Below are positions 1-8,551 of a DNA stretch of 64,000 nucleotides, piece by piece; the first letter of the stretch is position 1; the number at the start of each line of letters is the position of its first letter. Made by a program: the position numbers and the translations under genes. Location of the stretch: contig NZ_JAEHFY010000006.1 of assembly GCF_016623585.1 (NCBI RefSeq), positions 1 through 64,000 of the forward strand, read 5' to 3'. The notes below the pieces were generated by a model, which saw nothing but the letters and a program-made list of their open reading frames with translations, did no database searches and had not been told where the DNA came from. This stretch comes from Pedobacter segetis. GTDB taxonomy: Bacteria > Bacteroidota > Bacteroidia > Sphingobacteriales > Sphingobacteriaceae.

Positions 1-160
1 ATTTCTAATAAAATTAACCCTGTTTGTTTTTGGTTTGCAATTAAGCAAAGCAATTAACTAGCAACTTGAATTAATTATTTAAATAATTTTAGTACTTAGA
101 ATAACTATTTTAAATTTTAGTTGAATTTATTATATGGATAATTATAAAACGACCATTTTC

Positions 161-206: not shown

Positions 207-362
207 TTACCCATTAGTTAGTGTTCCATCAATATCTACTTTAGTATTATGTGGTATACCATCTAAAACTCCTGTAACATGTACAGTTAGAGTTGCTTTC
301 GGTTTATCCCCTCCAACAACTTTTGAAAGGTCTTTTACTTCAAATTCTTTTAAATTATCCAT
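207..362 (-). CDS. small double-glycine leader peptide (bacteriocin/signal-peptide type precursor)
   Basis: A 51-residue ORF whose N-terminus, MDNLKEFEVKDLSKVVGG, has the layout of a double-glycine leader: a short charged start, the hydrophobic positions L4, F7, V9, L12 and V15-V16, then GG at residues 17-18. Such leaders are cut by C39-peptidase ABC exporters. The predicted 33-residue core starts DKPKATLTVHV, ends DGTLTNG, has no cysteine, and alternates polar and nonpolar residues. The gene is divergent from the regulator at 613, with an operator-like array between them. I see no exporter or modification enzyme in the window, so bacteriocin, signal peptide and other secreted peptide all remain possible. 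Length, leader and ATG start are seen; function is inferred. Confidence 0.6.
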   Translation of the reverse strand: MDNLKEFEVKDLSKVVGGDKPKATLTVHVTGVLDGIPHNTKVDIDGTLTNG

Positions 363-471
363 TATCTTAAATTTAATATTTTATGTCTTTCTTTCACCAC
401 CTTGGCAGGGCAAAGTATTTTCCCTCTTGTAACGCTACTTTTCAAATTTGTAAACAAAAAAATTAAATATT

Positions 472-528
472 GGAATAAAAATATTCCTCAGCAGAATAAA
501 ATATGCTGTTTTAGAATAAAAATATTCC
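472..528. promoter_or_regulatory. three phased operator-like repeats between the peptide and regulator genes
   Basis: Three related elements begin at 472, 493 and 513: GGAATAAAAATATTCC (472-487), AGAATAAAATATGCTG (493-508) and AGAATAAAAATATTCC (513-528). The first is a perfect 6+6 inverted repeat with a 4-nt centre. The second also carries a CAGCA/TGCTG inverted repeat (489-508). The 20-21 bp spacing places all three on one helix face, about two turns apart. They lie between the divergent peptide and Xre-type genes, so binding by the regulator at 613 is the natural inference. Confidence 0.55.
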
Positions 529-612
529 ATATCAGCATAAAGTTTCTTGAAAAAGCAAAAACATTTTTTGCGAAAATTACATTATCTTGCTAAACCAAAA
601 ACCCTCAATCCT

Positions 613-978
613 ATGAATCAAGACATTGGCGCAAAAATTAAAAAAGTAAGGACCGAAAAAAACATCAAACAAGAAGAATTAGCCTATTTTTTAAGAATAA
701 AGCAAAGTACCCTTTCTAAAATCGAGAATGGAAATATTTTCATCAGTTTTGAGCAAATCATCAATATTGCTTACTATACCAAAACGCCCATTCATGATTT
801 TTTTCCTGATAATTTGACCCATCTACAACAAATTAATTTTAGGATGGAGTTGCAAAATTTAGAAAACGATCTGCGCTACCAAAAAGAATTGAATGCCCAA
901 CTCCTTAAAAGGATACAAAACCTGGAAAGGCAATTAACAGAAAATGGAATTACCCCCCACCGCAAACGCAAAGTTTGA
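613..978 (+). CDS. Xre/Cro-family helix-turn-helix regulator with C-terminal coiled coil
   Basis: A 121-residue protein. Residues about 5-64 form an HTH_3 domain (IGAKIKKVRTEKNIKQEELA, then STLSKIENG as the recognition helix). Residues about 72-112 are a heptad-like, charged region (LENDLRYQKELNAQLLKRI) that probably dimerises the protein. I chose ATG 613 because it starts directly before the HTH; an in-frame ATG at 547 would add 22 residues with no domain. The tail (HRKRKV) is basic. Upstream lie three phased palindromic repeats and a divergent double-glycine peptide gene, so autoregulation and control of the peptide are likely. The target is inferred, the domain is clear. Confidence 0.8.
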   Translation: MNQDIGAKIKKVRTEKNIKQEELAYFLRIKQSTLSKIENGNIFISFEQIINIAYYTKTPIHDFFPDNLTHLQQINFRMELQNLENDLRYQKELNAQLLKRIQNLERQLTENGITPHRKRKV

Positions 979-1072: not shown

Positions 1073-1552
1073 ATGGCTTTACAAGAGACCATTGATATGG
1101 TAAAAAAGATTTTTGAGACCTATCTCGAAAATAAAAACCTCAGAAAAACTCCTGAACGCTTTGCTATACTAGAAGAAATCTATTCCCGTACCGATCATTT
1201 TGATGTCGAGTCGCTTTACATCCAAATGAAGAATAAAAAATACAGGGTAAGTAGGGCAACTGTTTACAACACTTTAGAATTATTGCTCTCTTGCGATCTG
1301 GTTACCAAGCACCAATTTGGTAAAAATATGGCGCAGTTTGAGAAATCTTACGGTTTTAAACAGCATGACCATATTATCTGTTTAGATTGCGGTAAAGTGG
1401 TGGAGTTTTGCGATCCTAGGGTGCAACAAATACAATCTATGATGGGCGATTTATTGAAATTCGACATCAAACATCATTCTCTAAACTTATACGGCAATTG
1501 TACCCAATTAAAAGAAGGGAATTGCGCATCGCAAGAAAATAAATTTAATTAA
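1073..1552 (+). CDS. Fur-family metal-responsive transcriptional regulator
   Basis: A 159-residue Fur/PerR-like protein. The N-terminal winged helix includes the recognition segment [14 protein letters not shown] (58-71). The dimerisation domain carries HDH at 98-100 and a single CxxC (C103, C106). The second CxxC of structural-zinc Fur proteins is replaced by a wider pair, C143 and C151. Metal (Fe, Zn or Mn) or peroxide sensing cannot be decided from the sequence. It ends 33 bases before purA on the same strand and probably shares its transcript. Family assignment is firm, the effector is unknown. Confidence 0.85.
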
Positions 1553-1585: not shown

Positions 1586-2860
<1,275 letters not shown>

Positions 2861-3018: not shown

Positions 3019-3351
3019 TCAATACCTCAAGATTTCATTCAAGGTTTTAATCGCCAACTCTAATTCTGTTTTACTGATAAATCCAACTCTTTTAATTAGC
3101 CTTTCTTTAGCAATAGACCTTATATGGAAAACGAGAACCTCAGAAATATCAGTTAAGCAATTATTAGCGTTAGGTTCTAATATGGGGTTGCCCTTGTAAT
3201 TCTTAACTTTAGTAGTTAAAGGAGCTGCAATGATAATTTTAGTATGGGTATTTAACAAATTACCACTCAGTATTACAATTGGTGTATACCCAGCTTGTTC
3301 ACTTCCTTTAACTGGATCAAGGTTGGTGTACCAAATTTCCCCTTGTTTCAA
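3019..3351 (-). CDS. MazF/PemK-family endoribonuclease toxin
   Basis: A 110-residue protein with the MazF start MKQGEIWYTNLDPVKGSEQAGYTPIVILS: the GEIWxxxLDPxxGSEQxGxRP-like stretch is the family signature, with the usual arginine replaced by threonine-proline (YTP). Later segments IIIAAPLTT and ISEVLVFHIRSIAKERL match the second half, with R in the catalytic-site region. MazF toxins cut mRNA at short sites and stop growth when the antitoxin is lost. The start overlaps the antitoxin stop by 4 bases (ATGA), as in coupled toxin-antitoxin operons. No disabling mutation is visible. Confidence 0.88.
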   Translation of the reverse strand: MKQGEIWYTNLDPVKGSEQAGYTPIVILSGNLLNTHTKIIIAAPLTTKVKNYKGNPILEPNANNCLTDISEVLVFHIRSIAKERLIKRVGFISKTELELAIKTLNEILRY

Positions 3352-3581
3352 TCTTTGATTTGCTTAAAATAATCACCCATCCCCTCTTCTGCGATAGATA
3401 AAATATCGGGATCATCTTCAAAGTTTCTGTAAGAACGTACATATTCTGCCTTATTGATTTGATCAAGATAAATGCGAAGTGCTTTTTCTATCAACTTATT
3501 TTTGGGCAATTTAAGTTTAGCAGCTTTTTCTGAAAGCAAACTCATTAAATCATCTGGAAGTGTGCTAGTGAAGGTTGTCAT
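3348..3581 (-). CDS. ribbon-helix-helix antitoxin partner of MazF
   Basis: A 77-residue protein. The first ~45 residues (MTTFTSTLPDDLMSLLSEKA then KLPKNKLIEKALRIYLDQ) match the ribbon-helix-helix fold: a short beta strand followed by two helices. The acidic tail (residues about 53-77, with EDDP and EEGMGDYF) would wrap and block the toxin. The gene precedes and overlaps the mazF-like gene, the usual order for antitoxin-first operons. It probably binds an operator upstream; a palindrome is present at 3621-3642. Confidence 0.82.
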   Translation of the reverse strand: MTTFTSTLPDDLMSLLSEKAAKLKLPKNKLIEKALRIYLDQINKAEYVRSYRNFEDDPDILSIAEEGMGDYFKQIKD

Positions 3582-7494: not shown

Positions 7495-7513
7495 AGCTTG
7501 AGGGCCTAAGGGA

Positions 7514-7698
7514 AAGTTTTCCTGAGCGGAATCGAAGGGAATGTCATCCTGTGCGAAGTCGAAGGGAATGTCATCCTGAGCGGAGCCGAAGGGAATGTCA
7601 TCCTGAGCGGAGTCGAAGGGAATGTCATCCTGAGCGGAGTCGAAGGGAATGTCATCCTGTGCGGAGTCGAAGGAAATGTCATCCTGAGCGGAGCCGAA
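7514..7698. repeat. 27-bp tandem repeat array upstream of thyA (REP-like)
   Basis: Six 27-bp units start at 7537, 7564, 7591, 7618, 7645 and 7672, preceded by a partial unit. Each has a GGGAATGTCATCCTGAG half and a CGGAGTCGAA half; units differ at one to three positions (for example AGCGG/TGCGG/TGCGA, AGTCG/AGCCG). The core CCTGAGCGGAGTCGAAGG is a common intergenic repeat in Bacteroidota. Because 27 is a multiple of three, long apparent ORFs run through it on both strands; they are artefacts. The array ends 31 bases before thyA and fills most of the 585-bp ispE-thyA gap. Confidence 0.9.
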
Positions 7699-7729
7699 GG
7701 AGAGTGGACAGAAAATTTAAAAACCAAAA

Positions 7730-8551
7730 ATGAAACAATACCTAGATCTGATGCGCCATGTTTTAGAAAACGGCGCACAAAAACACGATAGAACGGGAAC
7801 AGGGACCATTAGCGTTTTCGGTTATCAAATGCGCTTCAATTTAGCCGAAGGTTTCCCGATGGTTACCACTAAAAAACTGCATCTAAAATCTATCATCCAT
7901 GAGTTGATCTGGTTTTTAAGTGGTGATACCAATATCAAATACCTAAAAGAAAACGGTGTAAAAATCTGGGACGAATGGGCTGATGAAAATGGGGATTTAG
8001 GCCCGGTTTATGGTTCGCAATGGCGATCTTGGCCAAAACCAGATGGTGGGCATATCGATCAAATCGCTAATATCATCAACCAAATAAAGAACAATCCGGA
8101 TAGCCGAAGGATCATTGTTTCTGCTTGGAACGTTGCCGAAGTAGAAAACATGGCCTTACCGCCATGCCATAGTTTTTTCCAATTTTATGTAGCCCCCGCA
8201 GATGAAGCCAAAGGAGAAACAAAAGGAAAATTGAGTTGTCAACTTTACCAACGCAGTGCAGATATTTTTTTGGGTGTACCTTTCAATATTGCCTCTTATG
8301 CCTTATTGACCATGATGGTGGCACAAGTTTGCGATTTAAACCTTGGCGATTTTGTACACACTTTAGGCGATGCGCATCTATACAATAACCATATTGAGCA
8401 AACCAAACTACAATTATCACGCAAGCCAAAAGCTTTGCCCACCATAAAAATAAACCCCGATGTTAAGGATATTTTCGGGTTTAAATTTGAAGATTTTGAA
8501 TTGGTGGGGTATGATCCACATCCTCACATAAAGGGGGTTGTGGCGGTATAA
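7730..8551 (+). CDS. thyA: thymidylate synthase
   Basis: A 273-residue ThyA, slightly longer than the 264 residues of E. coli because of an insert near residues 157-165 ([10 protein letters not shown]). It methylates dUMP to dTMP with methylene-tetrahydrofolate, producing dihydrofolate. RTGTGT (21-26), the catalytic cysteine C146 in [11 protein letters not shown], and [23 protein letters not shown] are hallmarks. folA, which recycles the dihydrofolate, lies downstream on the same strand, separated by a broken toxin-antitoxin pair. Confidence 0.97.

What the first reader, a model, noticed from the sequence alone, without database searches (positions are those of the whole stretch)
207..978. 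Double-glycine peptide with a divergent regulator at the left edge
A 51-residue ORF carries a bacteriocin-type leader ending V-V-G-G and a cysteine-free 33-residue core. It diverges from an Xre-type regulator with a C-terminal coiled coil, and three phased palindromic repeats lie between them. No exporter is visible nearby. The peptide is shorter than usual gene-calling limits and easy to miss. Together this could be a small secreted signal or bacteriocin unit of a type not described for this lineage. Leader and layout are seen in the sequence; GG-leader export by C39 peptidase transporters is established; function is inferred.
Basis: partly seen in the sequence, partly recalled or inferred. 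Interest (0 to 1): 0.72.

Follow-up and report, generated by a model that had tools for sequence, protein, structure and literature searches.

The report
Hidden precursor of a modified peptide
A tiny overlooked gene at the end of this DNA piece most likely makes the raw peptide that a set of enzymes, cut off from it by a repeated element and a gap in the assembly, would tie into rings and export; its switch gene and start signal are shared with related bacteria that carry quite different peptides in the same slot.

Summary
In detail: a 51-codon ORF (207-362, minus) with an 18-residue GG leader and cysteine-free 33-residue core, divergent from an Xre-type regulator, with three near-palindromes about 20.5 bp apart. 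Codon use and leader profile favour a real gene. "No exporter nearby" is an effect of the window edge: position 1 is a contig end made of one end of an IS-like repeat. Contig C70 starts with the repeat's other end, then carries accessory, ATP-grasp, SPASM, C39-exporter and HlyD genes, up to rel. rel adjoins fur in 9 of 17 genus genomes; here peptide and Xre sit beside fur, enzymes and exporter beside rel. So the peptide is probably the first gene of a grasp-with-spasm-like graspetide operon (0.7). A stem-loop after the peptide gene is shared with 15 of 17 such loci. Against: the joint is unsequenced, the repeat's flanks do not pair, both maturases miss NCBIfam cut-offs. Less expected: in four genomes the Xre gene keeps a 52-bp element 87-96% alike while the peptide genes beyond it differ entirely.

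The parts
1..77 (+). One end ('X' end) of a multicopy IS-like repeat; the contig, and so the window, begins inside it. That it is an insertion sequence is inferred; no transposase was seen
   Evidence: 75-105 bp at 100% identity at 7 contig ends of the own genome; 14 matches of the terminal repeat, 7 of each end type, all within about 110 bases of contig ends
148..189 (-). 19-bp stem-loop with T-rich tail, 17 bases after the peptide stop codon
   Evidence: scan; fold (-22.8 kcal/mol, z -7.6); similar hairpins after GG-peptide genes in other ATP-grasp loci (controls)
207..362 (-). 51-aa GG-leader precursor peptide gene
   Evidence: codon use; leader profile
309..362 (-). 18-codon leader ending V-V-G-G
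210..308 (-). 33-codon core: no Cys, Ser or Glu; 6 Thr, 4 Asp
387..438 (-). 52-bp conserved promoter/leader element; TACTTTG in it resembles a Bacteroidota -7 box (that consensus is recalled)
   Evidence: alignments; 46 of 53 to 50 of 52 identical columns between the four genomes; its 25-bp inner pattern, exact only in these four of 301 genomes
472..487 (.). Palindrome 1, GGAATA-N4-TATTCC, proposed operator
492..508 (.). Palindrome 2 (weaker), proposed operator
513..528 (.). Palindrome 3, AGAATA-N4-TATTCC, proposed operator
613..978 (+). Xre-type (HTH_3) regulator; C-terminal region looks like a coiled coil by eye
1073..1552 (+). Fur-family gene; synteny anchor
   Evidence: PF01475 102.4 bits; relatives
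1586..2860 (+). purA (name recalled from the sequence); synteny anchor
   Evidence: ORF; 86-95% identical ORFs beside fur in relatives

Best explanation
The 51-residue peptide is the precursor of a graspetide-type modified peptide. Proposed order in the genome: purA, fur, xre (one way), then the other way peptide, stem-loop, IS-like repeat, a 249-aa accessory protein, ATP-grasp, SPASM protein, C39 exporter, HlyD, then rel. Mechanism: Xre, acting on the phased palindromes and/or the 52-bp element, controls the divergent peptide promoter; the stem-loop lets peptide mRNA exceed maturase mRNA; the ATP-grasp enzyme joins Thr to Asp side chains in the core; the SPASM protein assists; the C39 transporter cuts after GG and exports the core. 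Shown: the ORF and its coding signal, the repeats, the element, the repeat ends at both contig starts, the maturase/export genes beside rel, and rel next to fur in 9 of 17 genus genomes. Inferred: the joint itself, that the repeat is an insertion sequence, regulation, modification and export. The repeat may now reduce expression of the maturase genes.
For: (1) Synteny: of 18 genus genomes 17 had a Fur hit. Among these rel lies directly before fur in 9 (60-75 bp between alignment ends), within 819 bp in 1 (G012), one extra gene away in 1 (G002); 3 (G010, G013, G014) showed no rel in the stretch held, two of them ending close to fur; 3 (own, G007, G016) have Xre next to fur. In the own genome rel is on C70, with HlyD, C39, SPASM, ATP-grasp and the 249-aa gene between it and the contig start, in the right orientation. 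(2) C66 and C70 begin with the two different ends of the same repeat. (3) C70:1-9000 has no GG peptide that scores well (best -5.1), while 18 of 20 ATP-grasp loci read had a GG peptide near by, judged by eye. (4) The leader scores 10.0 in a profile of 24 such leaders. (5) A hairpin of -16 kcal/mol or stronger lies within 90 bases after the GG-peptide gene in 15 of 17 loci measured, -20 or stronger in 9, and here -22.5; controls: co-directional gene gaps 15 of 120 and 0 of 120, other gaps 6 of 30 and 3 of 30. (6) The own genome has one TIGR04192 match at E up to 1e-30. (7) In G151 a GG peptide diverges from an Xre-like gene (28% to this one) and leads to the ATP-grasp operon (L152). Weak: leader similarity to the peptides of L166 (59% over 17 residues, E 0.10) and L161 (41% over 22, E 0.31; L161 also has the C39 exporter most like C70's of the 18 found, 58.6%).
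Against: The C66-C70 joint is not sequenced. Flanks of their two repeat ends show no shared target duplication; single short matches link C70's end to C72 (5 bp) and C15 (3 bp), and no length pairs most ends, so rearrangement or extra DNA between the contigs is possible. ATP-grasp and SPASM score below NCBIfam cut-offs (200 of 230, 120 of 175). The core has no Cys, which PMC8939145 calls typical of this branch; the same paper says the C39 peptidase is not typically encoded in ATP-grasp loci, though it is its commonest listed associated family. The stem-loop could be a plain terminator of a one-gene transcript. The leader profile is weak: 8 of its 24 members score below 0 when left out; a GG peptide of another export unit (C70, 179 aa) scores 5.4 and the C2 peptide 1.9. 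Two other C39 exporters exist in the genome.
Confidence: 0.7

Rival explanations
1. An unmodified bacteriocin or signal peptide, transcribed alone (the stem-loop is its terminator) and exported by another C39 transporter of the genome.
For: Three C39 matches in the genome, two of them outside the ATP-grasp cluster, each near a GG peptide; G017's peptide in the same Xre slot shares its first 18 residues (78%) with the C39-linked peptide on C2; in G114 an Xre relative diverges from a GG peptide in a 13-kb stretch with a C39 transporter and no ATP-grasp hit; hairpins of -20 kcal/mol or stronger also occur in 3 of 30 gene gaps that are not co-directional.
Against: Then the C70 ATP-grasp cluster would lack a visible precursor and the rel-fur synteny would be a coincidence.
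Confidence: 0.2
2. The module was broken by repeat-mediated rearrangement: peptide and maturases once formed one operon but now lie apart or are silenced, so the peptide is a relic.
For: No target duplication shared by the two repeat ends; no homologue in 398 other family genomes.
Against: Intact ORF with gene-like codon use, intact regulator ORF and element.
Confidence: 0.08
3. Chance ORF beside an Xre gene.
For: No homologue of the peptide found.
Against: Codon use, leader profile, position behind the conserved element.
Confidence: 0.02

Closest known systems
Bacteroidota ATP-grasp plus SPASM graspetide loci ('branch 5' of PMC8939145; NCBIfam TIGR04192/TIGR04193 grasp-with-spasm)
   Same: GG peptide upstream of ATP-grasp and SPASM genes; precursors that differ between close relatives; in the 20 loci read here a C39 hit in 18 and a HlyD hit in 12; stem-loop after the peptide gene in 15 of 17
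   Different: Maturases below family cut-offs; core without Cys; Xre regulator, whereas the passage read names an OmpR-family regulator as specific for branch 5; an IS-like repeat within the inferred operon
Microviridin/chryseoviridin-type ATP-grasp ligases
   Same: Closest solved relatives of the C70 ATP-grasp: 7m4s AMdnB E 8e-15, 7mgv CdnC E 3e-14 (that CdnC makes chryseoviridin is recalled)
   Different: NCBIfam MvdC and MvdD scores 97 and 92 bits, far below cut-offs of 425 and 475
CylR2-type small Xre repressors
   Same: Closest solved relative of the Xre protein: 1utx CylR2, E 4e-7, residues 8-64 only; that it represses a bacteriocin operon is recalled
   Different: Extra C-terminal region; other lineage
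GG-leader bacteriocins, including bacteroidetocins of Bacteroidetes (PMC6671954, listing and start of abstract seen only)
   Same: Small peptide with GG leader
   Different: No NCBIfam or Pfam bacteriocin model reached its cut-off; no comparison with bacteroidetocins was run

Membership tests
grasp-with-spasm (TIGR04192) | ATP-grasp protein above curated cut-off of 230 bits | tested here: not met
   200.2 bits; next family 107.2
grasp-with-spasm (TIGR04193) | SPASM protein above curated cut-off of 175 bits | tested here: not met
   120 bits; a Cys cluster CDICQDCEFRYMC is present
Bacteroidota graspetide precursor | Small peptide with GG site | tested here: met
Bacteroidota graspetide precursor | Encoded upstream of, and co-directional with, the ATP-grasp gene | tested here: inconclusive
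   Orientation and synteny fit, but the joint lies in an assembly gap at a repeat
Bacteroidota graspetide precursor | Core with Thr/Ser and Asp/Glu available for linkage | tested here: met
   6 Thr and 4 Asp; a weak criterion
Bacteroidota graspetide precursor | Conserved cysteines, called typical of branch 5 in PMC8939145, not universal | tested here: not met
   no Cys in the core
Bacteroidota graspetide precursor | Side-chain ester or amide linkages in the product | not testable with these tools
   needs mass spectrometry
GG-leader bacteriocin models in NCBIfam/Pfam | Score above cut-off | tested here: not met
   only NF038163, 15.1 of 35 bits; TIGR01847 did not appear; no Pfam hit at E up to 1
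Xre/HTH_3 regulators (PF01381) | Score above gathering cut-off | tested here: met
   35.7 of 23 bits

The most novel reading that the evidence does not exclude
The Xre gene with its 52-bp element and phased operators is a transferable regulatory dock: it stays constant while the exported-peptide operon plugged into it is exchanged wholesale (graspetide-like operon, other GG peptide, Sec-type small proteins with a lipoprotein-like/DUF1573 operon), in three of four genomes beside fur. One regulatory input would then serve an interchangeable set of secreted weapons or signals.
Probability: 0.35. Interest if true: 0.65.

Novelty: new variant of a known kind. Interest (0 to 1): 0.5.

Why it matters
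It offers an orphan maturation cluster its probable substrate, which a short ORF and a contig break had separated from it, and so makes a poorly characterised graspetide branch testable with named genes. The constant regulator and element with swapped cargo suggests how bacteria may change secreted peptides without rewiring their control.

Tried and rejected
Element elsewhere: one looser hit in G122 lies inside a long ORF and was dropped as chance. Peptide homologues: none besides itself in 18 genus genomes at E up to 1, in 399 family genomes at E up to 0.05 or in plasmids at E up to 0.1; a dN/dS test was therefore impossible. Phage records were not searched. Target-duplication pairing of the 14 repeat ends: no length pairs most of them. 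The repeat's body was not found: a 105-bp query of one end matched only 7 contig ends, so its family was not named. First idea that the 26-bp repeat marked a DNA-inversion site: dropped when the 14 copies proved to be two end types at contig ends. RNA fold of the element's stretch: not better than shuffles (z 0.6). The genome-contig scan with the Xre alignment gave 48 loci: three strong (the genus relatives), the rest weak HTH matches, by their titles mostly from Bacillota. The 249-aa protein: no Pfam or NCBIfam hit and no relative among the loci held. Rfam: no match in the window. The leader profile was trained on 24 leaders picked by eye from 17 of the 20 loci (L163, near-identical to L162, left out; L159 and L167 had none); hairpins were measured in the same 17 less L153 plus L163. 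G015 had no Fur hit and was left out of the synteny count. Literature: 'grasp-with-spasm' found no paper; other searches gave listings; one of them touched the Xre/bacteriocin question and none looked for the element, so I claim nothing about its absence from print.

Full report
What was claimed and what is there. The 51-codon ORF at 207-362 (minus), its VVGG leader, the cysteine-free core, the divergent Xre gene (613-978) and three phased near-palindromes are present. The ORF looks like a gene: its codon log-odds (0.37 per codon) exceed 94% of 309 chunks of the window's 34 long ORFs and all 73 shadow ORFs (model and controls share those ORFs), and its leader outscores all 26 GG-bearing ORFs among 529 background small ORFs in a profile of ATP-grasp-linked leaders (10.0 against at most -0.5). 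That profile is weak: 8 of its 24 members score below zero when left out, and GG peptides of the genome's other export units score 5.4 and 1.9.

The window edge hides the rest. The window is the start of contig C66. Its first 77 bases are one end of a multicopy repeat: 7 contig ends carry it at 100% identity, and 14 matches of the terminal repeat, 7 of each end type, lie within about 110 bases of contig ends. I read it as an insertion sequence, but its body and transposase were not seen. Contig C70 begins with the other end type, then carries a 249-aa gene, an ATP-grasp gene (TIGR04192, 200 of 230 bits), a SPASM gene (TIGR04193, 120 of 175 bits), a C39 exporter and HlyD, all running towards a convergent rel gene.

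Synteny ties the two contigs. Of 18 genus genomes, 17 had a Fur hit. rel directly precedes fur in 9, lies within 819 bp in 1 and one extra gene away in 1; 3 showed no rel in the stretch held; the own genome, G007 and G016 have Xre next to fur. In G007 (contig length and position as in Pedobacter psychrophilus CCM 8644) rel and fur flank a different operon plus Xre, with a degenerate second copy of the rel 3' end, a sign of an insertion site. In the own genome rel is next to the maturation/export genes and fur next to Xre and the peptide, so both sides of the junction are in hand. The joint itself is unsequenced, and target-duplication pairing does not support it: the C66 and C70 flanks do not match, and C70's end matches C72's end over 5 bp and C15's over 3 bp.

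Anatomy shared with other ATP-grasp loci. TIGR04192 matches (E up to 1e-30) occur in 80 of 399 family genomes, once in the own genome, and in none of the other 17 genus genomes. In 20 such loci read, 18 had a GG peptide near the ATP-grasp gene, judged by eye; a C39 hit appeared in 18 and a HlyD hit in 12. A hairpin of -16 kcal/mol or stronger follows the peptide gene in 15 of 17 measured loci, -20 or stronger in 9, and here -22.5. Controls: co-directional gaps 15 of 120 and 0 of 120; other gaps 6 of 30 and 3 of 30. C70:1-9000 has no GG peptide that scores well (best -5.1). PMC8939145 (section 6 part 1 of 3, and passages) describes Bacteroidota ATP-grasp/SPASM loci with GG precursors typically upstream and apparently unrelated precursors beside closely similar enzymes, which fits a peptide without homologues; it also calls Cys typical there, and this core has none. 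PMC13097080 (passages only) reports that group 14 graspetides co-occur with a SPASM protein and often with an NHLM-type transporter.

The regulator slot. Xre relatives (E up to 1e-14) occur in 6 of 301 family genomes. In the four of this genus (own; G016 95%, G017 54%, G007 45% identity) a 52-bp element lies in front of the divergent gene. The own copy matches the others in 47 of 53, 47 of 52 and 47 of 52 columns. Against G017 and G007, identity in 50-column windows is 0.94 and 0.92 there, about 0.5 on the Xre side 50 columns away and about 0.2 inside the cargo gene; against the close G016 the element (0.86) stands out little from the Xre side (0.76-0.85), and only the cargo side falls (0.48, then 0.22). 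A 25-bp pattern from the element was exact in these four and, apart from one chance hit with a mismatch, absent from the rest of 301 genomes. Beyond the element the genes differ: the GG peptide here; another GG peptide in G017; small proteins with Sec-like N-termini (by eye) in G016 and G007, with a lipoprotein-like and a DUF1573 gene in G007. In G017 the Xre unit is on another contig and rel-fur is intact. Palindromes of the same kind recur in G016 (centres 41 and 20.5 bp apart); in G017 and G007 only diverged versions were seen, partly by eye. In another genus, G114's Xre relative also diverges from a GG peptide in a stretch with a C39 transporter; in G040 no such peptide was seen.

Judgement. 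Best reading: precursor of a grasp-with-spasm-like graspetide operon under Xre control, split by an IS-like repeat (0.7). I do not file the maturases as members of TIGR04192/TIGR04193, since both cut-offs were missed. The novel part is the constant regulator and element with exchanged cargo; four genomes are too few to call it a system.

Noticed in passing
C70 SPASM gene (L010:1980-2936) and one SPASM gene in each of L150-L169: None of these 21 SPASM proteins (ATG-started ORFs) has the radical-SAM motif CxxxCxxC (motif recalled), so they may not be self-sufficient radical-SAM enzymes.
   Followed up: partly
L013:3890-4261 (G007): Degenerate second copy of the rel 3' end (residues 622-743, 60% identical) beyond an AbiEii-type gene and its neighbour: the rel 3' end looks like an insertion site.
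   Followed up: partly
G000:C2:785-3856 (L009): C39 exporter followed by a 68-aa GG peptide and a 168-aa membrane-protein-like ORF: a second bacteriocin-like unit in the genome.
   Followed up: partly
L011:4674-9020 (G000:C70): HlyD and C39 exporter divergent from a 179-aa protein with a GG leader: a third export unit.
   Followed up: no
window 3019-3581: MazF/PemK-like toxin gene (PF02452) with a ribbon-helix-helix partner, a probable toxin-antitoxin pair.
   Followed up: no
window 7506-7778: Overlapping ORFs on both strands made of short repeated units, so probably a tandem DNA repeat, just before a long ORF that looks like thymidylate synthase (by eye; no repeat or family search run).
   Followed up: no
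window 555-571: Perfect inverted repeat with 7-bp arms between palindrome 3 and the Xre start, outside the named three.
   Followed up: no
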